From IMG/VR virus record IMGVR_UViG_3300048818_000069, positions 1 through 43,621 of that record: a stretch of DNA of 43,621 nt; one strand, given 5' to 3'. Below are positions 5,755-32,562 of the stretch, piece after piece. The position numbers and the translations under genes were made by a program. Source of the DNA: a virus. Below the pieces are notes generated by a model that had not been told where the DNA came from, ran no database searches, and was given only the letters and a program-made list of their open reading frames with translations. How positions within the stretch are numbered: the first letter of the stretch is position 1; each line of letters starts with the position of its first letter.

Positions 5755-5758
<4 letters not shown>
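5564..5758 (+). CDS. Hypothetical protein, 64 aa
   Basis: GTG 5564 directly follows the stop of the Ntn-hydrolase gene, with GGAGGGG inside that gene as ribosome site. The protein is basic with a helix TPAQIHKRFGGEVAAYIVLLRESVILWKNLA and a charged tail EKDKEP. It has no clear membrane segment. It overlaps the GH5 gene by four bases (ATGA), so it is likely translated and coupled. No family recognised. Confidence 0.62.
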
Positions 5759-7056
<1,298 letters not shown>

Positions 7057-9510: not shown

Positions 9511-9541
9511 GCCAAGAGCATACTTCAACTTAGACGATCTG

Positions 9542-9960: not shown

Positions 9961-11961
9961 TCAGATCCACAACGGCAGGTAGTACGTAGTACCGTTTATG
10001 ACAATGTTTAGCCACGTTTGCGGCGTCAAGCTTACCGCCGACCCCGGTTTGTTGGTCCCTATCGTCGGGACCGATGTTCCTGTGCTTAAAGTCTGCCCGG
10101 CAAGCGAGATAGCACCACCAGATGCGATTATTAATCGGACAGTGCCGCCGCCTGTGGCGACAGAAAAAGCGCCTCCAGATCGAATCGCGTAACTGTCTAT
10201 GACGCCACCCGCAACCAATTCGGAGGCATCCCCAAAGTAGCATTTAACTGCCCCGGACCGGGAGAACGTCCAGTACCCGCCGCCAGCCGCCGTACTGTTG
10301 AAATCCCCTACAGCTATCCCTCCACCATCTGCAAACTCAAAGGCGCTACCGCCAGCCGCGGCGGTTACTGTAACAGCCACACCACTCGATGGCGCAGCTA
10401 TCGTTACATTGCCAGCGGCAGACCAGGACAGGGTTGCCCCGGTCCCGTTATAACCCATTATTCCGTGTCCATCGTTAAACATGTTGAACAGGTTGTAGCT
10501 GCCGGGCAAAACAAAGTTCAGACAGCGATCTGTTGCACTACCGCTGGCCGCGTAGACGATAAGACCGTCAGCACCGACTGATTCAAACACTCGAAGCGTA
10601 GGCATAGCGCCTGCTCCGCTGCCGTTTATCGTTACCGGCCCATCCATATTCCTCGGATCAAACACCCGATCGCGCGCCGCCATGTGCGGCTCGTCATGAT
10701 AGGGGCGCCAGCCCAACGATCCGCCCCCGCCGCCTGAACCGGATGCACCCGTAGCGCCGACTGGCCCGGCAACCCCTGGTCGCCCAGTGCGCCCATCTTC
10801 GCCATCCTGACCGCGAGATCCGCGTGGGCCGCCAGTAGAAGCCGCAGGCACTGAGGTTATGTTTCCGCTGGCGTCGAATGTAGCTAAGCCCACACCGTAG
10901 AACGGCATTGTGACGGATTGGTTCGTCTGCAAAACTAACCCCGAGGTTGTGTGCCCGCCAGCGCTAAGGCGTATTGCCTGTGCACCTAGAATCACGGCGT
11001 CAAGTGAACCCGCGTCACCGACGAGCTGGCCGGCAGATCCGGCAAAGCCTATTAAACCGCCCTGCTGGTTATTCGCGTTGAACGCGATCACAGCCGGAAT
11101 GCTGCCAGCAGGGGCGCCCTGCATTGTCGCGGAGTACGTACCGGCCGAGAACGTATTGAACACCGGGCCTGACGTTGACGCGCTCGGCGTGAATGTCCAT
11201 TGCCCCGTCATCGTCGGCGCTATGGCAACGCTGAGCGCTGGCGCAGAGGCCGCGTCCATGAAGTTCCCGGAGTGGCCGAGGATCGCCGTGAGCCCCAGTG
11301 AGGCCGTCGCTGCAGTGGAGCGGATAAGCGAACCGCGTGGCGCCTTCTCTTGCACTTGGTCGTGATCCATGCGCCGGCCAGCGGCGCCCCCAAGCGGCCC
11401 CATCGCCCCTGGTGGCCCAGCGGTCCCCGCCAACCCTTGTGGTCCTGGCACACCCGTGCGGCCTACGTCTCCGGGCTCGCCCTGACGCACCACGGCCACA
11501 CCGGGCAGACCCTGCAGTCCAGATGGGCCTGTAGCGCCCGCGTACCCGCTCCTGCCGGTGTCCCCCGCGTCCCCCCTACGCCCCATAACCCCCGGCATCC
11601 CGGCCGCTCCAGCGACCCCTGCTTGGCCCGGACGGCCACTGTACCCGCGCGGGCCTACCTCGCCCTCGTCGCCACGCCGACCGCGCTGCACAAGAATTGA
11701 GGGGTCCGCCGCGGGCGCTGCGTCCGCCGCCATGAACGCCGGGGACACGCCTTTGGTCGGCCATGCCTTGACGGTGCCTGTAGGGGGTTGTGAGAAGGAG
11801 CCGGGGGTGACGACGGGGGTCTGCAGCGTCTGGACAGCCGCATTGAGCGCCGTCGTGGCCTGCTGCAGATTCGCTATTTGCGCAACGACTGTTGTCGCTG
11901 TGGGGTTACTCAGAACCTTGACCAAGCCCCCGACGACTGGTAGGCGGACGCGAGTGACCAT
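9961..11961 (-). CDS. Collagen-like tail fibre protein, 666 aa
   Basis: Residues 1-90 form a helical, Ala/Gln-rich attachment part (VVAQIANLQQATTALNAAVQ). From about 94 to 192 there are Gly-X-Y triplets (for example GRPGQAGVAGAAGMPGVMG), broken once near 155-160 by VAVVRQ. A beta-rich part follows, then a second Gly-X-Y run at about 377-412 ending in a Gly-rich hinge. The C-terminal 250 residues are beta-helix-like, with repeated Gly/Ser/Ala turns, ending TTYYLPLWI. Collagen-like triplets form trimeric fibres in phage tails. The tip should bind the receptor. No catalytic motif is seen. Confidence 0.87.
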   Translation of the reverse strand: MVTRVRLPVVGGLVKVLSNPTATTVVAQIANLQQATTALNAAVQTLQTPVVTPGSFSQPPTGTVKAWPTKGVSPAFMAADAAPAADPSILVQRGRRGDEGEVGPRGYSGRPGQAGVAGAAGMPGVMGRRGDAGDTGRSGYAGATGPSGLQGLPGVAVVRQGEPGDVGRTGVPGPQGLAGTAGPPGAMGPLGGAAGRRMDHDQVQEKAPRGSLIRSTAATASLGLTAILGHSGNFMDAASAPALSVAIAPTMTGQWTFTPSASTSGPVFNTFSAGTYSATMQGAPAGSIPAVIAFNANNQQGGLIGFAGSAGQLVGDAGSLDAVILGAQAIRLSAGGHTTSGLVLQTNQSVTMPFYGVGLATFDASGNITSVPAASTGGPRGSRGQDGEDGRTGRPGVAGPVGATGASGSGGGGGSLGWRPYHDEPHMAARDRVFDPRNMDGPVTINGSGAGAMPTLRVFESVGADGLIVYAASGSATDRCLNFVLPGSYNLFNMFNDGHGIMGYNGTGATLSWSAAGNVTIAAPSSGVAVTVTAAAGGSAFEFADGGGIAVGDFNSTAAGGGYWTFSRSGAVKCYFGDASELVAGGVIDSYAIRSGGAFSVATGGGTVRLIIASGGAISLAGQTLSTGTSVPTIGTNKPGSAVSLTPQTWLNIVINGTTYYLPLWI

Positions 11962-11963
11962 GA

Positions 11964-14252
11964 TCAGGTCCCCGCTATTTGGTCGCCGATACCCGGAGCC
12001 GGCGCCGCTGGCGGCGCGGGGTTAAGGTCGGCGTACTCGTACCCCTTGCCGACTTTCGTGCGCATGCCATCGTACCCGGCTTTCTTGGCGGCTGCCGCTA
12101 TCTCCATTTGGTTTGCGGTCTCCGGTAGGCCGAGCGCTCGAGCGTTGTCCGCTGGGCCGCCTTCATCGATCATGTTCTTGAACGCCACCTTGTGCACATT
12201 CACGTCGCCATAGTCTGACGCTGCTGTGCCGCCCTCTTCTGGTGTCACATTGGGCGTCAGGAAGCGCACGCCAGCTTCGTTGGCGGCCTGCGGGTCCACA
12301 CCCTCGGGCGTGCCGCGGAACAGCGCGCCGCCGAACTGCTTGCCTTTTGGCAAGCTTGCGGGTGTTCCCTGCGCGGGCGGGTTATCGATTTGATCGAACA
12401 TTGTCGGTGCGGTGCTGCGCGGAGCGCCTTGTGCCTCTATCTGATCGAACAACCCCGGCTGCAGACCACCAGTGCCCGGTGGGCTCTGCGGCAGGTTCTT
12501 GTTCACACCGCCCGGCCCTTGCGGCGTTACCAAGTCGGTTTGGTTATCGAGCACGGGGCGCGCAGCGCCGGGCGGCGGCGTGAGCTTCAGGTCCGGGTTC
12601 GGGCCGGGGCCTTGCGGCACGTTCATTTCGTGCTGTAGCTGATCGTATACGGTGCCGGGCGGTGACGTGAGGTTCAACGACCCCGGTCCATCTGGCGCCC
12701 CTCGGCGAAAGTAGCTCAGCGCTGGATTCGTGGACGCAGCCGCGGCAGCCTCCGGGTTGCCGCGTCTCTGAAAGTTCCTAAACATGTTCTCCATAAACGG
12801 CCCGGCGCCGATGCCGAGCGCGCCACCGAGTTCGCCGAGGCCCGGCATGCCGGTAAGGTGGGATACCCCGGCGCCGAGTGCGCCACCAGCCGCGGCGCCC
12901 ATAGCCATAGGGGCGTAGTGGTACGACCCCTCGCCGGCTCCAGCGACGGGGCCAGACTTCAAGTTGTTGTACACGTGCCCGATGATGGCGCCATTGTCCG
13001 TGGAGGCTTGCGGATTCTTCGTGAGGAAATCGCCATAGGTCTTAGGACTGAAATGATCGCCAACGCCATCGGCGCCGAACGATTTTTGCCCCAAATAACT
13101 CTGTGCGAAGTCCTTCCGATACCCCTGGAATGTAGCTTGTGTTTCCGCGCCGGGGTTGTTCTGTAGCTGCCGACCCATGTAGTCTTCAAAGGAATTCGCG
13201 AGGGAATTGTAAGCGTCATCAAGCCCGCTATCCTGCGCGGACTTTGTGCTCGCGCGATCCCGCGCGTCGCTGATATTGGAGCGCAACTGTTCCCGTGTCA
13301 TGTTTGGCTGGTCTAGCATTGCCTTCTGCAAAGCGTCAACATCGGGTGAGCGCGGCAATTGGCTCGTTGAGTCTTGCAGGTTCTTCAAGTCTGTTGTGAG
13401 TTGCGCGTCGTGCGTCATGTTGTCCGGTAGCTGATTAAGCACACGGTTGTACCCCGCTCCGGGGCCTTTGTTACGAGCATCTATGATCGCCTGCTGACTC
13501 GGTACCGTTCCTTTGGGTATGTGTAGGTCATCGGCGGCCAAAGTATCCGTAGTCGCCAGCGAGCCGGGCGCGTGCATATCCGCCTTGGTGCCGAGATTGG
13601 TGTACCCTGCAGCCGTGCGAACATCTTCCGGTGATCGTGCTACCGCGGTAGCGTCCGCCGCATCCCCGGCCAGCCCGCGTACTCCCGATACCAGCGGCGC
13701 CGCAACCTGCGCTACCTGCGCGACATCCCCACCTACTTGCCCTGCTTGACGCACCACGTCGGCCGCGGTGTCACCAGCCACGTTGCCGACGCCACGGACT
13801 AGCGCCGAGCCGCCCTTGTCCATCAAGTGCGAGGGGTCGAGCTGTGTCTGCTGCAGCAACGCCGCAGCCTCCGGGCTCGACGGCTGGTGCACGATGCTCG
13901 AGCCGGCGTTCGGTGCGGGGCCGCGGCCGAATATGCGCGATGCTAGATCGCCGACACCATGCACGCCGCCAGCGAGTGCGTTCTGCCCCATAGTGCGTAT
14001 CGCCTCGCCCGTGCCGGTAGGTGCACCGAGCAGGCTGTCGATCGCAGACGGGGCAGTCGGGGGCGGCGTCTGCGGACCCATGTCAACGCGCCCACGCGTC
14101 ATATGGTCCCACTCTGGAGTTCCGGGTGTGAGCCCGGAAGCCTTAGCGTTTGTCTGCGTCACGTATGCGTTGTGCAGCCGCGCGTCCATCTCTGGATCGG
14201 GCGTATCCGGCATTGCCACGAGCGCACCGTCTGGCATTAGTACGTTGGGCAT
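11964..14252 (-). CDS. Large virion/ejection protein candidate with C-terminal ADP-ribosyltransferase-like domain
   Basis: A 762-residue protein. The N-terminus (MPNVLMPDGALVAMPDTPDPEM) is typical of podovirus internal or tail proteins. Residues 60-480 are Ala/Gly/Asp-rich helical sequence with a hydrophobic Gly-Ala patch near 450-490 (MAMGAAAGGALGAGVSHL). A Pro-rich linker follows with two F-D-Q-I motifs (LFDQIEAQ, MFDQIDNP). Residues 636-745 resemble the ART fold of phage polyvalent proteins: ALFRGTP (R646), GVRFLTPN, ASDYGDVNVHKVAF, KKAGYDGM and GYEYADLNP (E739). That domain would transfer ADP-ribose if the R-S/T-E set is complete. Neighbours are internal-virion candidates, so injection into the host is plausible. 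The ART call is by motif pattern only. Confidence 0.72.
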   Translation of the reverse strand: MPNVLMPDGALVAMPDTPDPEMDARLHNAYVTQTNAKASGLTPGTPEWDHMTRGRVDMGPQTPPPTAPSAIDSLLGAPTGTGEAIRTMGQNALAGGVHGVGDLASRIFGRGPAPNAGSSIVHQPSSPEAAALLQQTQLDPSHLMDKGGSALVRGVGNVAGDTAADVVRQAGQVGGDVAQVAQVAAPLVSGVRGLAGDAADATAVARSPEDVRTAAGYTNLGTKADMHAPGSLATTDTLAADDLHIPKGTVPSQQAIIDARNKGPGAGYNRVLNQLPDNMTHDAQLTTDLKNLQDSTSQLPRSPDVDALQKAMLDQPNMTREQLRSNISDARDRASTKSAQDSGLDDAYNSLANSFEDYMGRQLQNNPGAETQATFQGYRKDFAQSYLGQKSFGADGVGDHFSPKTYGDFLTKNPQASTDNGAIIGHVYNNLKSGPVAGAGEGSYHYAPMAMGAAAGGALGAGVSHLTGMPGLGELGGALGIGAGPFMENMFRNFQRRGNPEAAAAASTNPALSYFRRGAPDGPGSLNLTSPPGTVYDQLQHEMNVPQGPGPNPDLKLTPPPGAARPVLDNQTDLVTPQGPGGVNKNLPQSPPGTGGLQPGLFDQIEAQGAPRSTAPTMFDQIDNPPAQGTPASLPKGKQFGGALFRGTPEGVDPQAANEAGVRFLTPNVTPEEGGTAASDYGDVNVHKVAFKNMIDEGGPADNARALGLPETANQMEIAAAAKKAGYDGMRTKVGKGYEYADLNPAPPAAPAPGIGDQIAGT

Positions 14253-14253
14253 T

Positions 14254-15798
14254 TTAATGCCCTATGCGAGCGAAGTAATCCGCTGCTGATATGGGCGATC
14301 CAGGCTGCGGCCCGCCCCCATTAGGAGATCCGAGCGGCGGTGCGCCGGGCATGACGGCCGGCGCGTTGTCCTGCGCAGCGGTTGCGACTGGCGTAGGCGG
14401 CAGATTGCGGTCCTGCGGGTTGTTCGAGCCCGGACCAGATGCGGGCGGCGCAACGGTGTTAGCAGGCGGCTGCGCACTGACAGGCGCCGTCGCTCCACTG
14501 GAGACGGAACCCGAAGGGCCGCCACCAGACGATACGTTCGTAGCGCCAATGTTGGCAATGTGCTGCTTCAACACTTCTAGCTGAGCGTGTTGCCCTTGAG
14601 ATCGGTTCTCCATTTCCTGCTTAGCGGTAAGGATCGCCGGCCCAAGCTGCTGCGGGGATATGCTGTCCGGGAATAGGTTATTAGCCTCCGTGCGGCCCGC
14701 GTCCGTGATGCCCTGCGCGCCGGTAGCGGCGGAAATTACACGCGCGTACTCGTCGCGCGATGTAGTCAGCGCGTTCACGAACTGCTGTGTCGCTGGATCG
14801 CCAGTTATATGTTGCTGAAAATGCAGCAGCGCTCTGTTCAAGAGTGGAGATCCTGTCTCGTCAAGCGTTTTGCCGGGGCCATTGACGAACGAATTCGCCA
14901 AATCTAAGTTCATGCCTGCGGTCTTTTCGTACGCGTCCACCAGCGCAGATTGTTTCTGCAGCGCCGCCATCGCCGATTTGCTGGAGTTGAAACTAGCCGA
15001 ATTCGCTGCCTGCCCACCTGCGGCGCTCGGTCCGCCCGGAGGGGCGCCCGTCTGGCCTACCAGTGGCCGCTCACCGCGCGCCGCGGCTGCCGCGGATGTA
15101 AGAATCTTCATGCGCAACGGGCTCGCCCCCATGCCAAGAGCCGGAAGCGCGCCGGTTATATTGTACTTGTCGGCCATCGTGTCAATGTCCAATTGCGACG
15201 GCCCTCCCGCTGCGCCCGCGGACTGGTCCGCGTGACCGAATGCGGCCGGGTTCGTCGCCTGCGCATCGTGCAATACCGCGGTTGCATTCAGATTCTGTAC
15301 CTGCGCAGCGCCAAGTGGGCTCTCACCCGTAACGAGCGGGCGCGCACCGGGCGCTACCTGGTACTCAGGTGGCAGTGCAGTAGCGGCCGGCGCGATCTTC
15401 CCTGCTATGGAGTTAGCGGCCTCCTGCTGCGCTTCAGGAGACGCGTTGTGGTCCTGTATGGTCTGCTTAGCATGCAGCGTCTGCAGTCCCTGAAACGCCT
15501 GCACGACATCGTTCGGATTCTTGACCCCCATCGCGATTATCTGGCCCACGTACGCCCGCGCTTCGGCCTCATGTCCGGGGCCGAGGTAGTCGATCATGTT
15601 CCGTTCCATCTGGTCCTGTGCATCCTGCTGCTTGCGCTCGCCCTGCGCCTTGAGCACGGAGAGCTGCGCGTTGTTCATGGCTTCATCCGTCTGCGCCGAG
15701 CGCAACGAGTTGAGCTGCTGTGACTGCGCAATACCCAAGTTTAGCTGCGGGCGGTTCACACCAGAGAGCGAATCGAACAGTGTCTGTATACCGGCCAT
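14254..15798 (-). CDS. Internal virion/DNA-ejection protein candidate, 514 aa
   Basis: A long helical protein: residues 1-80 are Gln/Asn/Ala heptad-like (LNLGIAQSQQLNSLRSAQ, LKAQGERKQQDAQDQMERNM), followed by HEAEARAYVGQIIAMGVKNPNDV. The middle is Ala/Gly-rich, residues 270-430 are helical (KSAMAALQKQSALVDAYEKT), and the last 90 are Pro/Gly/Ser. Composition, length and place between the fibre end and the nozzle fit podovirus core or ejection proteins. No peptidoglycan-cleaving motif was found. The stop lies two bases from the next start. Confidence 0.68.
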   Translation of the reverse strand: MAGIQTLFDSLSGVNRPQLNLGIAQSQQLNSLRSAQTDEAMNNAQLSVLKAQGERKQQDAQDQMERNMIDYLGPGHEAEARAYVGQIIAMGVKNPNDVVQAFQGLQTLHAKQTIQDHNASPEAQQEAANSIAGKIAPAATALPPEYQVAPGARPLVTGESPLGAAQVQNLNATAVLHDAQATNPAAFGHADQSAGAAGGPSQLDIDTMADKYNITGALPALGMGASPLRMKILTSAAAAARGERPLVGQTGAPPGGPSAAGGQAANSASFNSSKSAMAALQKQSALVDAYEKTAGMNLDLANSFVNGPGKTLDETGSPLLNRALLHFQQHITGDPATQQFVNALTTSRDEYARVISAATGAQGITDAGRTEANNLFPDSISPQQLGPAILTAKQEMENRSQGQHAQLEVLKQHIANIGATNVSSGGGPSGSVSSGATAPVSAQPPANTVAPPASGPGSNNPQDRNLPPTPVATAAQDNAPAVMPGAPPLGSPNGGGPQPGSPISAADYFARIGH

Positions 15799-15802
15799 GT
15801 TT

Positions 15803-16507
15803 TTAACTCAGTGCGTATCGTGGTGTGGGGGAAGTGAATGGCGTCTGCCCCTGCGGTGCAGCCGGCGCCATTGTGCCGTTGGTGTAATCCTCATTCGTGT
15901 ACTGCTGCGCGAGATCCGGCTGCATGTTGGCAGCGAGGCCCTTACCAGCGGCGCCGAGCAACCCCGAGGTCAGGGTCTCGTATGGGTTCGTCTGCCCCGC
16001 CACGGCGGTGCGCAGGTTATTGACGAACATGTCGTTGCCACTCTGCGCGCCGACAAGGCCGAGATCGGTGCCGAGCGTATTCATAGCCAGCCCTTCACCC
16101 TGCCGTTGCTGCACAGCGCCGGTCATCTGCCCCATGTCGCTCGCATTCGTGTTGCCGAACGCTTGGACCTTGGCGTCATTCGCGGCCTGCAATTGCCCGT
16201 AGCGTGCGTTGGCGCCGGGCGCGGCCGGGGCACCGCTGTTCTGAGGATTGGTCGCCGCCTGATTCGTACGAAGCTGATTAATGAAGTCGCCGGTAGACTT
16301 CGACGCCAATTGCTGTGGACCAGACTTCGCGATCTGATCGATCGCGTTGCTCACCTTGCCAGACGCCTGCTCACGTAGCGTCTGCTGCTGGTCAATACCC
16401 TGCACAGCCGATGCCTGCGCCTTGTTGGTCGCGGAAATAGTGTTCGACGCCTGCAAACCTGTGCTTGCAAGCGTCATTGCGAGGGGAACGAGAAATGCCG
16501 GACCCAT
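15803..16507 (-). CDS. Internal virion/pilot-like protein candidate, 234 aa
   Basis: Starts MGPAFLVPLAMTLASTGLQ, a hydrophobic N-terminal segment that could insert in a membrane, then Gln/Ala/Asn-rich helical sequence (SAVQGIDQQQTLREQASGK). The middle is QLQAANDAKVQAFGNTNASDMGQM, and the tail is Pro/Gly-rich, ending TPRYALS. The composition is like T7 gp14-type or P22 gp7/gp20-type ejection proteins, with no detectable family signature. It belongs to the tightly spaced internal-virion block. Confidence 0.65.
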   Translation of the reverse strand: MGPAFLVPLAMTLASTGLQASNTISATNKAQASAVQGIDQQQTLREQASGKVSNAIDQIAKSGPQQLASKSTGDFINQLRTNQAATNPQNSGAPAAPGANARYGQLQAANDAKVQAFGNTNASDMGQMTGAVQQRQGEGLAMNTLGTDLGLVGAQSGNDMFVNNLRTAVAGQTNPYETLTSGLLGAAGKGLAANMQPDLAQQYTNEDYTNGTMAPAAPQGQTPFTSPTPRYALS

Positions 16508-16706: not shown

Positions 16707-17034
16707 AAATCGATCTCCCTCCAAATGCCGCCACGGGCGCGGGTGTTGGGGACAAAGTAGGCCGCGGCTGCATAGCGCCCGGAGCTGTAACAGGGGCCGC
16801 AGCCGGGGCCGCTGAGCCCGCAATCTGATCACCCAAGGCGCCACCGGGAAGCACCGAGCCACCATACCCCGATGTCGCGAGCGCGAGCGACGGGTTTACA
16901 CCGCTGTACTGTGGCATCGGTGTCTGCGCGTAGCCGTTGGCTTGTGATCGGAACGGCATGTACCCCGGACTACCAGGGGTAGCAGTGTTCTTGTTACCCG
17001 CGGTTCCCACCGAGGCGCCGAAAAAGTTACCCAT
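16699..17034 (-). CDS. Ala/Gly/Pro-rich virion protein candidate, 111 aa
   Basis: ATG 17034 begins MGNFFGASVGTAGNKNTATP. The protein is low-complexity, with GYGGSVLPGGALGDQIAG followed by an Ala/Pro stretch and a GGRSIYG C-terminus. The GDQIAG motif also ends the 762-residue protein (IGDQIAGT), which suggests a shared short interaction motif. The stop overlaps the following start by eight bases. No family recognised. Confidence 0.65.
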   Translation of the reverse strand: MGNFFGASVGTAGNKNTATPGSPGYMPFRSQANGYAQTPMPQYSGVNPSLALATSGYGGSVLPGGALGDQIAGSAAPAAAPVTAPGAMQPRPTLSPTPAPVAAFGGRSIYG

Positions 17035-17635
17035 AAATACTTGTCCCAGTGTTGCCGCCGTACGTGCTGCCGATCGGGGATCGCATCGCCGCTCTATTGG
17101 CAGCCGCGGTTGTTGCCGCATTATATATCCCCGCGGTGCCGGCGAATACGTTGCCAAGCGAATTGGCCTGTCCGTAGTTGCCAGCCGCGCCAAGTGATGC
17201 CGCCTGCGTCGCCGCGATGTTGGTCGGCATGGCGCCCGTGTAGTCGCCCTGCTCTGCGAGCCCGGTCAACTGATTCTTCGCCGCGATGTCCGAATTCTGT
17301 AGCGCCGACACGCCGCCCTGCGCCTGTTGGCTCGCCTGCAGCAGCCCCTTCGTGTAATCCTGCTGAAGCTGCACGTTGCTATCCGAGGCCGCGCTGCCCC
17401 CCGTAAGGCCGCCGCGCGCATTCGAGAACATCAGGTCGCGGGCATTCACCGCCTGCTGCTGATTGACCTGCCCCGTGTAGAAGTCATTCAGCGACTTCCC
17501 GTACTGCGCATACTGCGATTGTCTGGCCGGGCTGCTGTAGGCGTTGTTGATCGCGCCTACGCTCTGCTGGATCTGCGCTTGTGTCGCCGCGTTTGCCGCC
17601 GTGGCTGCATTCGCTGCGCTGTTGTTCGTGCCCAT
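17027..17635 (-). CDS. Gln/Ala-rich internal virion protein candidate, 202 aa
   Basis: Starts MGTNNSAANAATAANAATQA. Almost entirely predicted helix rich in Ala, Gln, Asn and Ser (SVGAINNAYSSPARQSQYAQ, LQQDYTKGLLQASQQAQGGV), ending NTGTSIYG. AAGGGG precedes the ATG by about 11 bases. This is the first gene of the ejection-like block after the nozzle and GNAT genes. No enzymatic motif. The last eight bases overlap the next gene. Confidence 0.66.
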   Translation of the reverse strand: MGTNNSAANAATAANAATQAQIQQSVGAINNAYSSPARQSQYAQYGKSLNDFYTGQVNQQQAVNARDLMFSNARGGLTGGSAASDSNVQLQQDYTKGLLQASQQAQGGVSALQNSDIAAKNQLTGLAEQGDYTGAMPTNIAATQAASLGAAGNYGQANSLGNVFAGTAGIYNAATTAAANRAAMRSPIGSTYGGNTGTSIYG

Positions 17636-17707: not shown

Positions 17708-18187
17708 TCAGTGCTTACACCTAGCGTATAGTACCGCATCCGCGCCCGAAGCGCAGTACCCGTGCATCGTACCCTCAAAGTTCATCCCAAGAACACCGTA
17801 CCACTTATGGGCTTTCGTCCTGCTCGCCAGAGAAACGCACTCTAGCCGGTGCGCCTGCCCGGACAGGAACATGGCGTTCATTATGCGGATCGCATGCCGA
17901 GTGACCGAAAACCAGTGCTCGCCAAAGGACTCCGGCGTGTTGATCATGAAGTCCCGCCACACTCCGGGGCGCTCCTGCACATAGCCAGCAACGGCCAGCG
18001 GCTGCCCCTTGTCGGTCTTGAAGACCCACTTTGGCCCCGGTTGCGCCCACGCGCCCGCCGCGGCGCCCTCGGCATTGTACGGCTGGCCGGTGAACGCCTC
18101 GAGCTGATCGCGTTCATCCTGCGGGGCGCGCTCGGCGACGATCAGGAAGTCGAGCAGAAATGGGTTGCTGTATGCGTTGACGATCAT
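17708..18187 (-). CDS. GNAT-like acetyltransferase-fold protein, 159 aa
   Basis: ATG 18187 follows AGGATAA and sits four bases after the nozzle stop; the frame is open to 18220, but that start is weaker. The pattern fits a GNAT fold: PKWVFKTDKGQPLAVAGYVQ (beta hairpin), VTRHAIRIMNAMFLSGQAHRLECVSLASRTKAHKWYGVLGMNFEG (helix plus the C-terminal strand-helix), then MHGYCASGADAVLYAR. T7 gp13-type internal proteins have a similar position and fold. The acetyl-CoA loop is poorly conserved, so it may be structural rather than enzymatic. Confidence 0.66.
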   Translation of the reverse strand: MIVNAYSNPFLLDFLIVAERAPQDERDQLEAFTGQPYNAEGAAAGAWAQPGPKWVFKTDKGQPLAVAGYVQERPGVWRDFMINTPESFGEHWFSVTRHAIRIMNAMFLSGQAHRLECVSLASRTKAHKWYGVLGMNFEGTMHGYCASGADAVLYARCKH

Positions 18188-18191
18188 GTTG

Positions 18192-21100
18192 TTATCCTGC
18201 GCTTGGGGTTGTGATGGCATAAAGTTGTGACGCCTGCCAGCTCCACGCTTGGTTCGGCGCCCACGTTAGTATCATGCTGTAGCTCACCGCGCTGAGCGGC
18301 ATCGCGATCGGCTGACCGGGCAACGTGTCCGCGGCAGTCAGTTCGTACGGCGCCGTCACCGAGAGTGACGTGGCGAAACCAGGATTGTCGCTGAATGACG
18401 TGAGATCGGTTTCGTCCCATCCGAATTGCACCGTCACGTCGCCAGTGCCGGCGAGATCGAAGCCGACCAGTTCTTTGTTGAACCCCAATCGCGTGAGGTC
18501 AAGGTACGGCCACTGCATGACGCACGTAAAATCAACACTGTGATCTGCCACTGTTCCTGTTGAGAATGGCGCTTGAACCGGAGTGAAGTTGGTCGTGTAC
18601 AGCGCGGAGTTAGACCAGCGCAGTTCCGCTAGGCTGCCGTACCAGAAGGTGTTTTGATAACCCGATTGGTAATCCGCACCGACATAGTATTGCCCGACAA
18701 TCGCAGGCCCCATATCCGCTTGCGATGGGAGTGTCGCAGGGGTGTTATCTGATTTAAGTACGTTTTGTGGCGTCCCACCAACGCCATCAACATACATCGT
18801 CATGAACAATCCGTGGCGCACGAGTGCAAAGTGATGCCAGGAATTTAGGGTAATTCCGAGTAGCGCTTGACTAGCTACGGATACCGTAGACAGCGCATTT
18901 GTGGACCCACCACCGTAAGCGCCCAAAGTTCCCGACGTTCCATCTCCGGTCCACTCAACCCGGAACCCCTGCACATTCCCGTTTGAGAAATCGGATATAA
19001 CCATCGAACCGCCGCCGTTGCTGTACGCCTTCAGATTGAACCATCCTTCCCATGTAAAGTCGCCCGTTCCTGGATCGAGTGGGAAACCAGGGCTAGACAG
19101 AGTTTGAATATACGCGCGTGTTTCGGTGCCGTACCAGTTGAGCAACAGCTCGGCGGGGCCGAAGAACCCCGGAACGCCGGCTACCTGCGCCCCGTTAATC
19201 GATGTCCAAACCAAGCCGTTCACCGATGCGTCGGTAATCGTGTACCCCGGAGTGCTCAGCGGCAGTAGCACTTCCACACCGGCCGGTGGCGTCAACGTCC
19301 CGCCATAATCATCAACCAACGTGGCTGCATCGAGCTGCCATACAAGGTTGCCCGCGGTGCGCAAGTAAAGCACTTCGCCCTTCAGCGTCCAGTAGGTGAT
19401 CGCATCCGGGAACACGTACCGGCTCCATGACTTCTGTGAGTTGCCGTTCACTGTGAGCACAAACGCCTGCGGCCCAAATATCGTCCACTCCTGGCCGCGT
19501 GCCGGGTAGTAGAGCGAAGTTGGGTAGTAGGTGCCAGCAGCGAGCGCCGCCTGAATAAGAACGTCGATCGGCTGCCCGAGCTGGCCGGTCGCCATGTTGG
19601 CCGTCGCGCCGGTCGTACCGACATTGCGCAGGCCGAGATTCGTCAGGAGCAGTGCATCGTTCGCTATGCTCTGCGCACCGAGCGTCCACACCGAGCCGAC
19701 AGGCTGCGCGTCCAGGATCGCCATGTTGGCCGGGTCCGGGTCGATCTGCCACATTTGGTATCCACCCGAGTTGATGGCGAGCAGGTTACCACGGTACAGG
19801 CAGAGAACCTCCATTGGGTTGTTGCCGTAATTGTTGAGCCCGGTCGGCAAGTACCCCGCGTTGTTCGCTGTCGTGTAGTCAGTCGGGTTGACTGTCGCAC
19901 TGTATGCCACAATGTCGTTGTCGCCGACGAAAACCTTGCTGGCGCCAAGCGCCACAACCTTTGATACCGGCAAGTTCGGGTCCTCGATCTGTCGAGAGAT
20001 CGCAACCCACGACATGTTGCCATCCGATACGGAGCCGCCAATTATGGTCGGCCACACGGGTTCTGTTGCGCCGGATTGTGTGAGCGGCGCTGCCGTCCAC
20101 GTGATGATGCTTGATCCTACAGCTTCCCATATGACGGTGTTGTCATCCACCGTATCGCCCGCGATAGTAGGCCACGCGGGTTCCGGCGACGCGGCTGAAG
20201 TACCAGGGCCGACTTGCACGGCCTCGTAGATAAAGTTGGTGATCGCGGTAGGCGCTTCCAGGTTCCACGTTATTAGATCCACGCCCACAGTGTCGCGCGA
20301 CGCGGTGCCGGATGCGGCGTGCATCGCTACCCTGCAGGTTATCGCACCCGCTGGCGCGACGAAGGTAGCGGTTTCTTTAGTCCACGCACTATGACTGCTG
20401 TGCGCCCCGCCATCCGTAGTGGAGATCAGCGCTGTGGCGCCCGTATCGCTGTACCAGTTCATCTTCGCGGATACGGCAATGTTCGAGTCGCCGCTCGTGC
20501 CGGTTGTAAGGTAATACGTGACAGTTATGGACTGCCCCGGTGCGCACACACCGAAGGTGTTCATCGTCATCAACGCGCTCGTGGCGCCGGGCGGGTTGAT
20601 AGCCTCGTAGTGCCCCTGGTACGGGTTGCCCGCGTTGCTGATCGACCACGCCTCGCCCGAGCCCCCAAATGTCCAGTTACCGTCGTCGCCCGCTTCAAAG
20701 TCGCCATTTGGAATAGCGTTGATGACGGCGCCTTGATCGACCGTTGGTGTGACAACAGATCCGGTCGGGTAGATCGTACCCGCTTTCCACGGAGCAAGAG
20801 TGCCGCTAATAGATGGCAAGACACCCACCGCGCCAGTAGTTGATGCTGTGGATGCCCCGGCAACGTCCGCCGAATTGCCGTAGCGATCAGTGATGTTCGT
20901 AGCCAGCGGCTGCGTTGCCACTGTCGCGGCTGCTGCAAGACCAGACGTAACAAAGTCCCCAAACTCCTGCACCGTTCCGCCAATGTTGGTAGGCCATGTC
21001 GGCTCTATCTCGCCCGTGTGCGCGTCAGTCGTAGCCGCCGTGGCTTGATAGTAATAGCCGTTCGGTACTGTCGGCTCCATAGTCTGATCGACTACGATGA

Positions 21101-21884
21101 ATGTTTCCGGTGTCCATGTAGGAATTGGCGCTATATCCTGCACGGCTTGATACGCGAGGCCGTTTGGCGTGACCGGCGTGACAATCGCGTTGGCTTGGTA
21201 CACCGTGTTCGCGGCCCACGCGCCACCAGACTGTAACCAGAAGTGCGCGATGGCACCAGACGAGAATTCCGCCACGACGTACAGGAAGCCCATGAACGGC
21301 TTCGAGAACCAAATGAATGTGATCGTATCCCCGGTGCCATAGGCGGCGATGGCGAATGGCCCCGAGCCCGCGGTAGACGAAGGGATCGGGCTGCCCCCCT
21401 CAGTGGCTGAAAGCGTGAACGTGGTCGGGCTGAAATTCACAGCCGTAACATAGTACGTGGTGAGTACAGCGAACGGCGCCGGCAGCGTTCCGCCAACAAC
21501 CACGGATAACGTAATCGGCGCCCCTTCCAGCAGGGTGTGCGGCTGAACAGTCGTGAAGACCGCGGGTGCTGCATCGGTAATCGCAACCTGCATGCTGACG
21601 CTGGCATTGACGAGAAGATTGTTAACGTAGCCCGCTGGTACAGTCGTAGGCACCGTGGAGAAAACCTGGAACGCGCCATCGAAATACACAAGCCCCGCGG
21701 TCGTGTCATCGAGCGTCGCGTTGCGTATCGTGCCCTCGCGCGGAACCACGCTGCCATCGATCGTAAGGCGCGCGTTGAGCAAGTCGTACAAAGACGACGG
21801 GCTCGCGCCAGCCTTCACGCGCAGCCTATTGATGCCGCCTTTAAGGACCGTCAGGGCAATGGGGGTGCCGCCCGGTTCTGCCAC
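18192..21884 (-). CDS. Very large tail nozzle/hub protein (P22 gp10/T7 gp12-like) with inserted LamG-like domain, 1230 aa
   Basis: GTG 21884 lies one base after the upstream stop with GAGAG ahead of it; about 100 upstream codons in the same frame are shadow. The N-terminus GINRLRVKAGASPSSLYDLLNARLTIDGSVVPREG is typical of podovirus nozzle proteins. Residues of about 630-860 carry the propeller-like part (ALGASKVFVGDNDIVAYSAT, PMEVLCLYRGNLLAINSGGY, QEWTIFGPQAF). Residues of about 915-1098 form a LamG/concanavalin-like sandwich (FTWEGWFNLKAYSNGG, SWHHFALVRHGLFMTMYVDG, GSLAELRWSNSALYT). Three WPT-x-x-G repeats lie between about 295 and 610. Known nozzle proteins are about 470-800 residues, so this one is enlarged by insertions that may bind glycans. 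Confidence 0.8.
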   Translation of the reverse strand: MAEPGGTPIALTVLKGGINRLRVKAGASPSSLYDLLNARLTIDGSVVPREGTIRNATLDDTTAGLVYFDGAFQVFSTVPTTVPAGYVNNLLVNASVSMQVAITDAAPAVFTTVQPHTLLEGAPITLSVVVGGTLPAPFAVLTTYYVTAVNFSPTTFTLSATEGGSPIPSSTAGSGPFAIAAYGTGDTITFIWFSKPFMGFLYVVAEFSSGAIAHFWLQSGGAWAANTVYQANAIVTPVTPNGLAYQAVQDIAPIPTWTPETFIVVDQTMEPTVPNGYYYQATAATTDAHTGEIEPTWPTNIGGTVQEFGDFVTSGLAAAATVATQPLATNITDRYGNSADVAGASTASTTGAVGVLPSISGTLAPWKAGTIYPTGSVVTPTVDQGAVINAIPNGDFEAGDDGNWTFGGSGEAWSISNAGNPYQGHYEAINPPGATSALMTMNTFGVCAPGQSITVTYYLTTGTSGDSNIAVSAKMNWYSDTGATALISTTDGGAHSSHSAWTKETATFVAPAGAITCRVAMHAASGTASRDTVGVDLITWNLEAPTAITNFIYEAVQVGPGTSAASPEPAWPTIAGDTVDDNTVIWEAVGSSIITWTAAPLTQSGATEPVWPTIIGGSVSDGNMSWVAISRQIEDPNLPVSKVVALGASKVFVGDNDIVAYSATVNPTDYTTANNAGYLPTGLNNYGNNPMEVLCLYRGNLLAINSGGYQMWQIDPDPANMAILDAQPVGSVWTLGAQSIANDALLLTNLGLRNVGTTGATANMATGQLGQPIDVLIQAALAAGTYYPTSLYYPARGQEWTIFGPQAFVLTVNGNSQKSWSRYVFPDAITYWTLKGEVLYLRTAGNLVWQLDAATLVDDYGGTLTPPAGVEVLLPLSTPGYTITDASVNGLVWTSINGAQVAGVPGFFGPAELLLNWYGTETRAYIQTLSSPGFPLDPGTGDFTWEGWFNLKAYSNGGGSMVISDFSNGNVQGFRVEWTGDGTSGTLGAYGGGSTNALSTVSVASQALLGITLNSWHHFALVRHGLFMTMYVDGVGGTPQNVLKSDNTPATLPSQADMGPAIVGQYYVGADYQSGYQNTFWYGSLAELRWSNSALYTTNFTPVQAPFSTGTVADHSVDFTCVMQWPYLDLTRLGFNKELVGFDLAGTGDVTVQFGWDETDLTSFSDNPGFATSLSVTAPYELTAADTLPGQPIAMPLSAVSYSMILTWAPNQAWSWQASQLYAITTPSAG

Positions 21885-21885
21885 G

Positions 21886-23127
21886 TTAGCTCTCGAACGT
21901 AACGAGCGTCGGGCGCACCGCTGGCGGAACAGGACGCGAGCCCGGAATATACCGCCCCGTTTTGTGCGAGGCGGCGACAAGCTCACCGCGCAGCGCGTTG
22001 GCTTGTGCCTCGATGTTGTTCGCGTCCGGCTGCCCGTAGTGCGACTTGGCGTTCGCGAGCGCGTGCAGGAATACCAGCTCACTGTCGATCGTTGTCTGAT
22101 CGGTCGACGCGCTGAATGCCTGCAGACCGAAATGCCCGAGCACCCACAGCCAATAAGTCTGATCTGGCGCCGGGTAGACTTCAATCGCATTGCGGATCGT
22201 GTAGCGCGCTGGGCGCCACGGCTTCGCGAGCATCGTGTAGAGCGAGGCGTCTATGCCCTCTACCAGCGGCCACCACACATTGCGCGAGTCCTGCGCGTAT
22301 ACCGCCGCGATTGGCTTGTCAACGTCGAGGGTGCGCCCCTCGAGCACGTTCTCGTCGTTGTCGAGCAGCGAGTAGAAGCGCTGGCCGGGAACCATCTTCC
22401 ATCGGAACCAGCGGCGCGTGCGAAGCTGCGAGTAGCGCCGGTACAGGAAATTCTGTGAGGACTGCAAAAATTCCTGGATCAACGCGGCCATTCCGGGCGG
22501 CGGCGTCGTGGTCTGATTGCTGAACCCCAATCGAATGAGCATGCGCGTGGTGAGTGTGCCCAGCGTGTCGTAGCCGGGCGCGTCAACGACGACGCCATTG
22601 TAGTTTATCGGATCGAGCGCGTTCGGGAAGTCCCACGCCGGCTGCGAGTTCGCATTTCGCGTGATTGATACCGCAACTTCCGTATTTGTCGCGGTCGCGC
22701 TAGGCGTGCCAGTGATGAACGTAACCTTGATCGCGAGCCCGGTATACGCACCAGGGGTAAGTACGATTGCGCCGCTCTGATTGCCCTGCACGCCGAGCGG
22801 CAAATTTGTGGCTACCCAAGTAGCGCCGCCATCAGAAGAGTACGATAGCACCGCCGTGCTGCCGTCGTTCGACAGACTAGTGATCTGCCACTCGAGCGAT
22901 ATGCTTCCAGTGGTGTCAAGGCACTCTTCGTTGCCGATGAAATAGATGACGCCAAAGGGCGCCACGTCGCGGTTGCCGGTCCACCAATACCGACCGTCAC
23001 CGCTGTCCGGGTAGTTGACATCGGCCGGGACCATGCTGAGATTCGACGGCGGGACATTGCCCGCGGCGTCTTGCCACGCGCCGGGGTTCGTGATGTCGCC
23101 TTGGCCTGTGGGCAGGATCGCGGTCAT
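21886..23127 (-). CDS. Head-to-tail adaptor with added beta domain, 413 aa
   Basis: Residues 1-180 form a beta sandwich (GVIYFIGNEECLDTTGSISLEW, SYSSDGGATWVATNLPLGVQ, TGLAIKVTFITGTPSATATN). Residues 195-400 look like the podovirus adaptor (T7 gp11/P22 gp4 type): LTTRMLIRLGFSNQ, LIQEFLQSSQNFLYRRYSQL, RRWFRWKMVPGQRFYSL, RYTIRNAIEVYPAPDQTYWL. It would sit between portal and nozzle. The extra N-terminal sandwich is unusual, since simple adaptors are under 200 residues. The gene follows an intrinsic terminator and abuts the nozzle gene. Confidence 0.76.
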   Translation of the reverse strand: MTAILPTGQGDITNPGAWQDAAGNVPPSNLSMVPADVNYPDSGDGRYWWTGNRDVAPFGVIYFIGNEECLDTTGSISLEWQITSLSNDGSTAVLSYSSDGGATWVATNLPLGVQGNQSGAIVLTPGAYTGLAIKVTFITGTPSATATNTEVAVSITRNANSQPAWDFPNALDPINYNGVVVDAPGYDTLGTLTTRMLIRLGFSNQTTTPPPGMAALIQEFLQSSQNFLYRRYSQLRTRRWFRWKMVPGQRFYSLLDNDENVLEGRTLDVDKPIAAVYAQDSRNVWWPLVEGIDASLYTMLAKPWRPARYTIRNAIEVYPAPDQTYWLWVLGHFGLQAFSASTDQTTIDSELVFLHALANAKSHYGQPDANNIEAQANALRGELVAASHKTGRYIPGSRPVPPAVRPTLVTFES

Positions 23128-24757: not shown

Positions 24758-25831
24758 TTACGCGATGCTCAGAACAGCGTGCGCATTGCGCTTGCCGGTA
24801 GTGATTGCCGCTTTCGCAGTCAGGCCCCAATAGTGCACATATCGGTCGTACACGCGAGGCGGGGTGCGCGAGATCATCCAGTGGCCCTGGATTGGCCGCA
24901 GCTTGAAATACTTCATGTTCAGGAAGTAGCAGCGCTTTGACCACGGGATAGCCGGGGCGTCGAGTGCATCGAGCACCGACATCACGGGGTCCCAGTCAAT
25001 CTCGAGGCCCTTGAAGGACAAGCCGGTCTTGGCACCGCTGCCGACTGACCCATCCAGCGTCACACCCTTGTTCATGCCGTCCTTGACGAACACGTTGCGG
25101 ATGATCGAGCTTTTCGCGTCGGCGCGATACGCGTCGAGGAATTCCTCACCGCACAGGATAAGGTCGGGGGTGAGGCCGCCGTAACGTGTGCAGTCGCGCC
25201 ATGCCAGTTCCATCTGATTGGTCAGGTTGCCCGCGACCGCGGTGCTGATGCCCGTGATCGCATTGTTCTGCCACCAGGGATAGATGGACTGGTCGAGACC
25301 ACCGACCACGAGCGACACCGTAGGAGTCGTTGAGACCAGCGCGTCGAGGCCGGGGATGTCCGTCGCGGCCTGCGAACCGTCCCGATGGATCATGTAGTCA
25401 AAGTTCTCCTGGAAACCGAGCTTCAGCGTCTCGCTGTTCTCGGTAAGCAGGTTCGTGAGCTGGATCTTCTCGGCTTCGCTCGGGCTGGATGACTTGTCAT
25501 CCGTCATGAGGATGCCGTTCTGCGTCATCTCGTCTTCGTTCAGCCCGAAGCCGTCATGGAACGCGCCCCACGTGTACTTGGCCTGCTGCAGCGTGCGCTT
25601 GCGGTTGTAGGTAACCTGCGAATCGCCGAAGTAGGACTGGAAATTCGAGTCGTTGGAGTAGCGGAGCTGCTCGACAACGTACTGCAAGGCGCCCACGTAG
25701 GTTTTCTTTTCGGCCATCAGCTTCTTGAGAAGCGGATGGTTGATGTTGATTTGATCGATCGGATCGTTCTTCAGGTAGAAGTCGATCGCGGCTTTGCCGC
25801 CGTAGGAAATCTGTTCGGTAGTGAAAGGCAT
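24758..25831 (-). CDS. Major capsid protein, HK97-type fold
   Basis: A 357-residue capsid subunit. Typical segments are NHPLLKKLMAEKKTYVGALQ near the N-terminus, FQENFDYMIHRDGSQAATDI leading to IPGLDALV (spine region), a central NQMELAWRDCTRYGGLTPDLILCGEEF, and the P-domain/A-domain end GLEIDWDPVMSVLDALDAP and CYFLNMKYFKLRPIQGHWM. There is no long N-terminal delta domain; a separate scaffold gene lies upstream. TTTGGAG is spaced nine bases before ATG. Its own promoter and a leader hairpin precede it, and two terminators lie downstream of the capsid genes, giving high output. Confidence 0.9.
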   Translation of the reverse strand: MPFTTEQISYGGKAAIDFYLKNDPIDQININHPLLKKLMAEKKTYVGALQYVVEQLRYSNDSNFQSYFGDSQVTYNRKRTLQQAKYTWGAFHDGFGLNEDEMTQNGILMTDDKSSSPSEAEKIQLTNLLTENSETLKLGFQENFDYMIHRDGSQAATDIPGLDALVSTTPTVSLVVGGLDQSIYPWWQNNAITGISTAVAGNLTNQMELAWRDCTRYGGLTPDLILCGEEFLDAYRADAKSSIIRNVFVKDGMNKGVTLDGSVGSGAKTGLSFKGLEIDWDPVMSVLDALDAPAIPWSKRCYFLNMKYFKLRPIQGHWMISRTPPRVYDRYVHYWGLTAKAAITTGKRNAHAVLSIA

Positions 25832-30470: not shown

Positions 30471-30901
30471 TGGTTGATACCTTTGGATAGTGGCGAAATG
30501 CCCGAACCCGTCGAGCTTGGGAATAGTTGGCGCTGCGCTTGTGTCGCCGCTCGCGGCCTGGAGTAATTGCTCACCGCGCTCGGCGGCTGCGCTGAGCGCG
30601 CCGGCTGGCGCGGAGGCGGCTGCACTGGTCTCGGAGGCAGTGCTTTCTGCTGTGACTTCGACAGCGGGGGCGGCGACGTTGACCCCGGCAGGATAATCCG
30701 CGCCGGGGGTGCCGGCGCTTGGGTAGGGTTTGGCGCGACTGGCGCGGGGGCCGGGACCACCGGAGCAGCAACCGGCTCGGCGCTCGGCGCAGGGGCCGGC
30801 GTTGCCGAAGCGACTTCCGGGGCCGCGGCTTTTTGCTGAAGCCAGGGCTCAGACGCTGCTTGCGCCGCGGCTGGCTCGCCAGAGAAGTTGCGGTAGGTCA
30901 T
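30467..30901 (-). CDS. Pro/Ala-rich protein, 144 aa
   Basis: ATG 30901 overlaps the terminase stop (ATGA); the longer frame upstream is shadow. After MTYRNFSGEPAAAQAASEPW the sequence is dominated by Ala/Pro repeats (APVVPAPAPVAPNPTQAP) and PPRPVQPPPRQP, ending SGISPLSKGINQ. It is likely unstructured. It may act as a flexible adaptor in packaging or assembly, judged only from its place between the terminase and portal genes. Confidence 0.68.
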   Translation of the reverse strand: MTYRNFSGEPAAAQAASEPWLQQKAAAPEVASATPAPAPSAEPVAAPVVPAPAPVAPNPTQAPAPPARIILPGSTSPPPLSKSQQKALPPRPVQPPPRQPARSAQPPSAVSNYSRPRAATQAQRQLFPSSTGSGISPLSKGINQ

Positions 30902-32562
30902 GATGTGTAGCGCACCTTTGGTTTGTCGGAATTCGAGCCCCACTCGATCCACTTGCCCGTAAAGGGTATCAGCAAAGGGCGTGCCTTAGCAACCGGCTCG
31001 AACGGCGCCATCATCTGATCGAGGCCGCGCCCGATCAGGCCGCACACGTCCGGGCCGTCGTCCCATCGCCCGCCAGGGAACTTGAGCAAATTCTCGATCG
31101 TGCGGTCGGCCCACCCGCGGTTGCGTGGGAAGTGCACGATACCGGCGCCGACGCGCGCGTGGAACGCCTCGAGCTTCATGCTCTTGTCCTGGATCGATGG
31201 CAACGCCTCGAGCGTCACGTATGCCTGCGCCTCGCGCATCGCCATGCGGATGTACGGGCCGATTGCCTTGTCGATAAGGCCGCCTTCATGCCACCACTTC
31301 GCCGGCTTCCACATCTTCACCTTTCCGATGAACGCAGCCACGCTCTTGTCTGTTTCACATTGAGCAAACCACCAATCGAGCGCCCACAGTTCGCCGCGCG
31401 GGTCGAGGCCCCATACGCCGTGTTCGGTAAAGTCGGGCTCGCGTTTGCCTTGTTCAATCTCCGTCGTAGCGTAGTCGCTCGCGCCATATATGCGCAGTAC
31501 CTTCGGGCGTGCATGTAGCTCTCCTGGTGGAAGATCCGGGTCATAGCGCGTGGCCTCGAGCTGCTCGCGCTGGAATATGATACCGCTGCCCGGCGCCGGC
31601 CGCTGCTGGTAGAGCGCGGACCACGTGCGCTTGGCGCGCGGGTTGTCGCGGAACGCCTTCCAGTGCTCCGGTGGGAAATACTCAGGCCAGATGAATTCTC
31701 CCATCTTGCGACCGAGCACGTCGTCGGCGCGCTCGCACTCCGCTTGCAGACACAGCACGTCCCACACCTGATTGTCGCGGCACAGGATCAGGCCGGACTC
31801 GCCGTTGTAGTCCGCGGGCAGGATCGAGCCCGCAAGATCGATTTCAGACCATCGCGTCTGAATAAGCAGCACCCACATTTTCGGTTTGGCGCGGGTGAGC
31901 ACCGTGTCGATGAATTCGCTCGCCACCTTGTCGCAGACGGTCGGAGAGTCCGCCTGCTCGCGGTTCGCCGTGGGGTCGTCTATGACCGCGCCATCGAAAC
32001 GGTTGCCCGTGATGCCGGCCAGGAGCCCTGCAGCGAGCAGCCCGGAGCCGTTTGATAGGGACCAGTCATCTATGGCGCGCTGGTCCTCATTGAGCGTCGG
32101 ACGTTCTTCCCAAAGCGCGGAGTAGTCTGGATCGCGACAGATCGAGCGCACGCGCCGAGATTGCTTTGCCGCTATGCCTGTCGCGTATGATCCCAAGAGG
32201 ATTTGCGAACCCGGAAACTTCCCCATATACCAGGAAGAACCCAGTACGGAAGCGTAGGTGGATTTCGCGGTCCCTGGCGGCGCGAAGATCATCCCCCGGC
32301 CGCGTGGCGTCAGCATAATCCGCTGGATGTGATTCATCATCAACGCGTGGTGCAGCGCTATCAGGCTCTCGATTGGTAGGAATTGCCACGGTATGCCCTC
32401 TTGGTTGTTGATTAGGCGGCCGGTTATCGGGTCCTCTTCGTCGCGCATCTCGGCGAGGTTCGGGATGCCCGGAATGATTATCGACTGCGAGAATTCTATC
32501 AGCGACGCGCGCGCATTCGTGCGGCGGTGAACTTCCTGCGCGATTGTGAGCTTGTCGCTCAC
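30898..32562 (-). CDS. terL: Terminase large subunit
   Basis: GTG 32562 overlaps the small-terminase stop (GTGA), giving 554 residues; 37 further upstream codons are shadow. The ATPase has Walker A APPGTAKST at about 94-102, a preceding adenine-binding-like WQFLPIESLIALHHALM, Walker B VIDDP with the catalytic acidic residue after it, and a coupling motif LLIQTRWSE. The nuclease domain begins near residue 330 with YGASDYATTEI and continues VWGLDPRGELWALDWW, the latter like the RNase H-like core. The protein cuts and pumps DNA into the prohead. Order with TerS and portal is canonical. Confidence 0.95.
   Translation of the reverse strand: MSDKLTIAQEVHRRTNARASLIEFSQSIIIPGIPNLAEMRDEEDPITGRLINNQEGIPWQFLPIESLIALHHALMMNHIQRIMLTPRGRGMIFAPPGTAKSTYASVLGSSWYMGKFPGSQILLGSYATGIAAKQSRRVRSICRDPDYSALWEERPTLNEDQRAIDDWSLSNGSGLLAAGLLAGITGNRFDGAVIDDPTANREQADSPTVCDKVASEFIDTVLTRAKPKMWVLLIQTRWSEIDLAGSILPADYNGESGLILCRDNQVWDVLCLQAECERADDVLGRKMGEFIWPEYFPPEHWKAFRDNPRAKRTWSALYQQRPAPGSGIIFQREQLEATRYDPDLPPGELHARPKVLRIYGASDYATTEIEQGKREPDFTEHGVWGLDPRGELWALDWWFAQCETDKSVAAFIGKVKMWKPAKWWHEGGLIDKAIGPYIRMAMREAQAYVTLEALPSIQDKSMKLEAFHARVGAGIVHFPRNRGWADRTIENLLKFPGGRWDDGPDVCGLIGRGLDQMMAPFEPVAKARPLLIPFTGKWIEWGSNSDKPKVRYTS

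What the first reader, a model, noticed from the sequence alone, without database searches (positions are those of the whole stretch)
11964..12345. ADP-ribosyltransferase-like domain at the end of a virion protein
Residues 636-745 show FRGTP, FLTPN, ASDYGD, KKAGYDGM and GYEYADLNP in the order of phage polyvalent ART domains. The rest looks like an ejected internal protein, so the enzyme could enter the host with the DNA, in the manner of T4 Alt.
Basis: inference. Interest (0 to 1): 0.63.

Follow-up and report, generated by a model that had tools for sequence, protein, structure and literature searches.

The report
Swappable enzyme tail on ejected protein
A short-tailed soil phage carries, at the end of a protein probably fired into the bacterium with its DNA, a divergent ADP-ribosyltransferase-like enzyme domain that relatives replace with an acetyltransferase-like domain or another module, so this gene looks like an exchangeable holder for takeover enzymes.

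Summary
Residues 637-749 of the 762-aa protein at 11964-14252(-) carry the listed motifs at the stated places (R646, E739). Pfam, PHROGs, PDB, phage and plasmid searches gave no match, but the domain recurs at the same gene position in one other phage contig (L120, 33% identity, E 5.6e-11). The L120 copy, alone or paired with the window copy, aligns end to end with bona fide ART-PolyVal domains (profile score 29.0; 300 shuffles averaged 3.1, maximum 13.3). The window copy alone is borderline. Structure prediction is only suggestive. The protein body is homologous to Xanthomonas phage PBR31 'putative internal protein C' and lies after the internal-protein genes, before the fibre. In 8 related loci this slot holds a giant 1,800-2,550-aa protein; five of these carry ART-PolyVal. 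In the closest relative the ART interval is replaced by a GNAT-like domain with DNA-level conservation on both sides. Best reading: a divergent, mini-polyvalent ART effector, probably ejected with the DNA to modify a host target. The scaffold resembles ART-PolyVal (H-Y-D), but strand 1 has Arg, as in the R-S-E class. Fold and slot are well supported; activity, target and ejection are inferred. New variant of a known kind.

The parts
11964..14252 (-). 762-aa slot protein: conserved body plus C-terminal enzyme-like domain
   Evidence: ORF; homologues at the same position in about 50 related loci; body profile matches Xanthomonas phage PBR31 'putative internal protein C', E 8.8e-23
12006..12344 (-). 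ART-PolyVal-like domain, residues 637-749
   Evidence: Homologous to L120 C-terminus; profile alignment with ART-PolyVal above shuffled controls
12315..12317 (-). codon of R646, strand-1 FRGT; aligns with His of YHGT in ART-PolyVal
12255..12257 (-). codon of T666, strand-2 FLTPN; aligns with Ser of L120 ALSYS
12036..12038 (-). codon of E739, putative catalytic Glu in YEYADLNP; Glu also in L120 (VEIVDLKP)
12432..12662 (-). linker just upstream of the domain, residues 531-607, 86.5% DNA identity with L052
   Evidence: blastn block
11964..11999 (-). C-terminal tail (GIGDQIAGT and stop), start of the second conserved DNA block shared with L052 (77.9%, running into the next gene)
   Evidence: recurrent tail motif
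9961..11961 (-). collagen-repeat tail-fibre-like protein, next gene
   Evidence: Pfam Collagen E 1.7e-13
14254..15798 (-). internal-cluster protein directly upstream; Rhizobium phage RHph_N65 has a 'putative injection protein' in the same place (position only, no sequence match)
   Evidence: synteny
15803..16507 (-). internal-cluster protein
   Evidence: conserved in synteny
17027..17635 (-). conserved late protein used as anchor to gather loci
17708..18220 (-). late protein matching PHROG 308 'internal virion protein'
   Evidence: E 9.1e-5
18192..22190 (-). nozzle-position tail protein with Laminin_G_3 and carbohydrate-binding-like stretches
24758..25831 (-). major capsid protein
   Evidence: PHROG 9953 E 4.7e-34
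30898..32673 (-). terminase large subunit
   Evidence: PHROG 38 E 2.2e-66

Best explanation
The gene encodes a podovirus internal-protein-C-type (T7 gp16-position) protein whose last ~113 residues are a divergent ADP-ribosyltransferase-fold domain of the ART-PolyVal (HYD2-like) scaffold with an R-T/S-E active-site set. Assembled into the particle, it is ejected with the DNA; the domain then uses NAD+ to ADP-ribosylate a host component early in infection. Relatives use the same C-terminal interval for a GNAT-like domain or another module, or fill the slot with a giant multi-effector polyvalent protein. Shown here: gene, domain homology, slot conservation, cassette exchange. Inferred: packaging, ejection, catalysis, target.
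For: Motif set in place. Homologous domain in L120 at the same slot, E 5.6e-11. Profile alignment to ART-PolyVal far above shuffled and specific: 29.0 versus 3.4 for T4 ModA/B, 4.6 for GNAT-like, 11.4 for the third C-terminal module. Same slot in five related loci holds Pfam ART-PolyVal: L139 1.4e-27, L147 3.3e-21, L148 1.5e-22, L155 2.9e-25, L158 2.1e-4 (sub-threshold), with LPD38, MuF_C, SLT, ddrB-ParB or PBECR. Body matches PBR31 internal protein C, E 8.8e-23 (annotation); PHROG 308 in the same cluster. Low-confidence L120 model ranks an ART-PolyVal-like Salmonella phage protein second in BFVD (prob 0.98, E 0.021). Closest relative swaps the interval for a GNAT-like domain between DNA-conserved flanks.
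Against: No Pfam, PHROG or PDB sequence match for the domain. Window copy alone is borderline against the ART profile. AlphaFold models poor: window alone pLDDT 48, L120 plus window pLDDT 55, pTM 0.51; PDB matches weak (best E 0.22, diphtheria toxin) and VIA Z at most 4.6 with kinases on top. Only two copies of this subtype found. No virion proteomics for any relative; the PBR31 name is itself putative.
Confidence: 0.62

Rival explanations
1. The domain is an active ART-fold enzyme but a NADase or NAD+ phosphorylase (RES-like) rather than a transferase: it depletes or diverts NAD+ instead of marking a protein.
For: The weak structural matches that span the whole L120 model include the RES-type toxins MbcT (Z 4.0), ParT (3.5) and NatT (3.4). 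PMC9503650 states that the H-Y-[EDQ] and R-S-E clades also contain NADases and NAD+ phosphorylases.
Against: Sequence profile places the scaffold with ART-PolyVal, whose predicted role is macromolecule modification (PMC5512222, itself a prediction); Z values are low and kinases rank higher.
Confidence: 0.15
2. The domain keeps the ART fold but has lost activity and serves as a structural or cargo part of the internal core.
For: Window copy is diverged from the ART profile in the strand-2/helix region; PolyVal His is replaced by Arg.
Against: R, S/T and E are kept in both copies at 33% identity; relatives put an unrelated enzyme-like (GNAT) domain in the same interval, which suits effectors better than a structural need.
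Confidence: 0.12
3. An ART enzyme that acts during late infection or assembly, for instance on packaging components or against defence, and is not ejected.
For: Late-gene position; PMC9503650 raises countering of immune processes aimed at the packaging apparatus as an alternative for structural-cluster ARTs.
Against: Body homology with an internal protein, and giant polyvalent proteins in the same slot.
Confidence: 0.07
4. Not an ART at all: motif resemblance is chance, and the domain is another small alpha/beta fold.
For: No library hit; low-confidence models; VIA best Z to PfkB-type kinases over half the model.
Against: 0 of 300 shuffled and 0 of 500 natural segments reach the pair or L120 score; BFVD matches enriched in polyvalent ART proteins; same slot holds true ARTs.
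Confidence: 0.07

Closest known systems
ART-PolyVal (Pfam PF18760; polyvalent-protein ARTs, Tox-ART-HYD2 clade, PMC5512222)
   Same: Order and spacing of motifs: strand-1 xxGT, [FY][FL]T strand 2, xKN strand, G[YH]DG, terminal E/D..x.P; same late-gene slot in related (pro)phages
   Different: Arg instead of His in strand 1; scores below detection by the Pfam model; ends a ~760-aa protein with one recognised effector domain rather than a 2,000-5,000-aa multidomain one
T4 Alt / ModA / ModB (R-S-E ARTs)
   Same: Arg-Gly in strand 1 (ModA LWRGVP), Ser/Thr and Glu; idea of an ART delivered with DNA (Alt)
   Different: No profile similarity of scaffold to ModA/ModB; different gene context and carrier protein
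Xanthomonas phage PBR31 putative internal protein C (T7 gp16 position)
   Same: Homologous body (E 8.8e-23) and position after internal proteins A and B, before the tail spike
   Different: PBR31 protein is 557 aa and ends without an enzyme domain
Slot protein of IMGVR_UViG_3300037202_000023 (L052), closest relative
   Same: N-terminal third, linker and last codons highly conserved
   Different: Carries a GNAT-like domain in place of the ART domain

Membership tests
ART-PolyVal (PF18760) | Match to the curated model above its cut-off | tested here: not met
   No hit in the protein, domain or genome even at E 10
ART-PolyVal (PF18760) | Homologous scaffold (end-to-end profile alignment) | tested here: met
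   Global hhalign 29.0 versus shuffled maximum 13.3, for the window+L120 pair; window alone borderline
ART-PolyVal (PF18760) | H-Y-D active-site configuration | tested here: not met
   R646 in place of His; E739 at the acidic position
ART-PolyVal (PF18760) | Located in a polyvalent protein of the late/virion cluster | tested here: met
   Same slot as giant polyvalent proteins bearing PF18760
T4 Alt/Mod (R-S-E clade) | R, S and E active-site residues | tested here: inconclusive
   R646, T666, E739 aligned by homology with L120 only
T4 Alt/Mod (R-S-E clade) | Scaffold similarity to ModA/ModB | tested here: inconclusive
   Global score 3.4, at background level, but only a two-sequence Mod profile was used
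ADP-ribosyltransferase fold | Split beta-sheet ART core in the structure | tested here: inconclusive
   Models pLDDT 48 and 55; ART matches present but weak
ADP-ribosyltransferase fold | NAD+-dependent ADP-ribosyl transfer | not testable with these tools
   needs enzyme assay
Podovirus internal/ejection protein | Homology and gene order with internal proteins | tested here: met
   PBR31 internal protein C E 8.8e-23; conserved order
Podovirus internal/ejection protein | Presence in virions and transfer into the cell | not testable with these tools
   needs proteomics of an isolate

The most novel reading that the evidence does not exclude
This phage lineage uses the C-terminus of one internal protein as a single-effector exchange site: an enzyme module (ART, GNAT, or the 'NNASGES' module) is traded by recombination between a conserved linker and a conserved short tail ([LI]-[GAS]-D-x-[LFI]) that may load or dock the effector, and the ART module combines a PolyVal scaffold with an R-S/T-E active site, bridging two ART clades.
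Probability: 0.3. Interest if true: 0.72.

Novelty: new variant of a known kind. Interest (0 to 1): 0.52.

Why it matters
Phage ARTs packaged in virions were mostly described in myoviruses and in giant polyvalent proteins (PMC5512222, PMC9503650). A small, one-domain version on a T7-gp16-position protein, exchanged with an acetyltransferase-like domain between DNA-conserved flanks, gives a compact system for asking which early host targets phages modify and how ejected effectors are loaded, and shows where to look for uncatalogued effectors: the variable tails of internal proteins.

Tried and rejected
Direct searches of the whole protein or domain in viral contigs, phages, plasmids, Pfam, PHROGs and PDB gave nothing usable; plasmid hits at E 7-10 were discarded. 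Genome scan with the two-domain profile found no relative; one hit in 274 genomes (E 0.004) was a DapA-like enzyme and was rejected. L151 was a chance match in a long structural-type protein and was rejected. Scanning PF18760 in 398 Pseudomonadota genomes rang nowhere, so it says nothing. Mixed alignments with ART-PolyVal were not used for AlphaFold because MAFFT misplaced key motifs in every combination tried. PDB fold matches are too weak to count as proof: kinases outrank ARTs by VIA Z. One pasted GNAT segment (protein 6, L125) had wrong residues at its start; it is not relied on.

Full report
Observation. The ORF at 11964-14252 on the minus strand encodes 762 residues. The record is a 43.6-kb virus contig.

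Sequence searches of the protein or domain against Pfam, PHROGs, PDB, public phages and plasmids found nothing usable, and Pfam ART-PolyVal does not match anywhere in the record. The case therefore had to be built from relatives. The major capsid protein brought in 48 viral loci and a conserved late protein (17027-17635) brought in 80 more hits, partly the same contigs.

Synteny. Comparison of full-length relatives shows one late-gene order (terminase, capsid, nozzle-position protein, internal cluster, slot protein, collagen-like fibre) and a protein at the same slot in each. A profile of 17 slot proteins finds further members among the loci and matches Xanthomonas phage PBR31 'putative internal protein C' with E 8.8e-23, which lies after internal proteins A and B and before the tail spike. 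PHROG 308, 'internal virion protein', matches a gene in the same cluster. The gene order, and this homology, point to an internal protein. That it is ejected follows from knowledge of T7-type internal proteins and is inferred.

Domain identity. Among 7,614 ORFs of the gathered loci one other protein holds the domain: L120:12304-14748, same slot, C-terminal, E 5.6e-11. L120 reads FRGVPKG, LSYSPDHATAMKYAG, VKFKNALD, AGYDGLR, VEIVDLKP, a more canonical ART pattern. The pair aligned to eight ART-PolyVal domains gives a global hhalign score of 29.0; 300 column-shuffled controls gave mean 3.1, SD 2.2, maximum 13.3. L120 alone gives 27.3 and none of 500 natural segments reaches it; the window alone gives 11.1 and four of 500 do. 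The window assignment is thus transitive through L120. The score is specific: T4 ModA/ModB 3.4, GNAT-like 4.6, third C-terminal module 11.4. The strand-1 His of ART-PolyVal (YHGT) is Arg here (FRGT/FRGV), while Ser/Thr and Glu positions are kept, so the active-site set resembles the R-S-E class on a PolyVal scaffold. PMC5512222 gives H-Y-D for polyvalent ARTs and R-S-E for Alt.

Structure. The window domain alone gave a useless model (pLDDT 48). L120 with the window gave pLDDT 55, pTM 0.51, with strands and helices in an order compatible with ART. BFVD's second match is an ART-PolyVal-like protein (prob 0.98, E 0.021) and further polyvalent ARTs follow; PDB's first is the diphtheria toxin catalytic domain at E 0.22; VIA ranks kinases over half the model first, with the RES-type ARTs MbcT, ParT and NatT over its full length at Z 3.4-4.0. 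This is suggestive only.

The slot. In eight related loci the slot protein is giant (1,816 to over 2,500 aa). Five carry ART-PolyVal by Pfam (L139, L147, L148 and L155 above the cut-off, L158 below it), with LPD38, MuF_C, SLT transglycosylase, ddrB-ParB, RadC or PBECR domains. Among roughly 50 slot proteins surveyed, two carry this ART subtype, eight a GNAT-like domain (one of them, L122, found at E 3.8e-17 without being in the profile), and fourteen an unnamed 'NNASGES' module. GNAT assignments rest on weak Pfam scores (best 3.8e-4) plus the family profile. PMC5512222 notes GNAT and ART domains as neighbours in polyvalent proteins.

Cassette exchange. The window gene and L052 share DNA blocks at gene bases 1-557 (76%), 1591-1820 (86.5%) and 2253 onward into the next gene (78%); the interval 1821-2252, which holds the ART domain, has no similarity and in L052 encodes the GNAT-like domain. 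The last codons (IGDQIAG versus ISDQIAG) are kept. A short motif of that form ends 20 of 43 slot proteins under 1,100 aa, against 0.35 expected by composition; the pattern was chosen after looking, so the number overstates its significance.

Mechanism. Most likely the protein is packaged, ejected with the DNA, and the domain modifies a host target using NAD+. Packaging, ejection, activity and target are not shown. NADase activity, loss of activity, and a late intracellular role remain open, in that order of likelihood.

Verdict. A divergent ART-PolyVal-like domain in a polyvalent-type slot of a podovirus-like phage, membership in PF18760 not claimed because its model and His are not met. New variant of a known kind.

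Noticed in passing
window 5755-7056 (+): 433-aa ORF with a glycoside hydrolase family 5 cellulase match (Pfam E 3.4e-19), unusual cargo for a phage.
   Followed up: no
window 3029-3877 (+): 282-aa ORF with a dATP/dGTP diphosphohydrolase N-terminal domain (E 1.2e-12), a type of enzyme linked to altered phage nucleotide pools.
   Followed up: no
window 18192-22190 (-): Nozzle-position tail protein of 1,332 aa with Laminin_G_3 (E 1.5e-9) and weaker carbohydrate-binding matches; lengths vary widely among relatives.
   Followed up: partly
window 11964-11999 and ends of L054, L055, L058, L066, L072, L079, L106 slot proteins: Recurrent short motif [LI][GAS]D.[LFI] (LGDEF, LADLL, IGDQI) at and near the C-termini of the slot proteins, possibly a docking or packaging signal; pattern chosen post hoc.
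   Followed up: partly
L054, L055, L063, L066, L099, L106 and others, last ~100 residues of slot proteins: Unnamed C-terminal module beginning NNASGES, in 14 slot proteins, without Pfam match.
   Followed up: partly
window 23663-24730 (-): 355-aa ORF after the capsid gene, about 95% identical in the two closest relatives (L068, L052) and missing in most others; no Pfam match.
   Followed up: no
window 8977-9528 (-): Recombination endonuclease VII-like ORF (Pfam E 1.1e-14) beyond the fibre genes.
   Followed up: no
L061:8152-10497 (-), L111:4763-7069 (+), L132:6192-8378 (+), N-termini: Leader of the form K[FY]PQY.DM.DD.LA..LH.KFYADMP; in L061 its first ~50-60 residues match other phage proteins, including Vibrio and Shewanella phage DNA methylase-annotated ones, and PHROG 10691 of 3,925 positions; perhaps a shared packaging leader.
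   Followed up: partly
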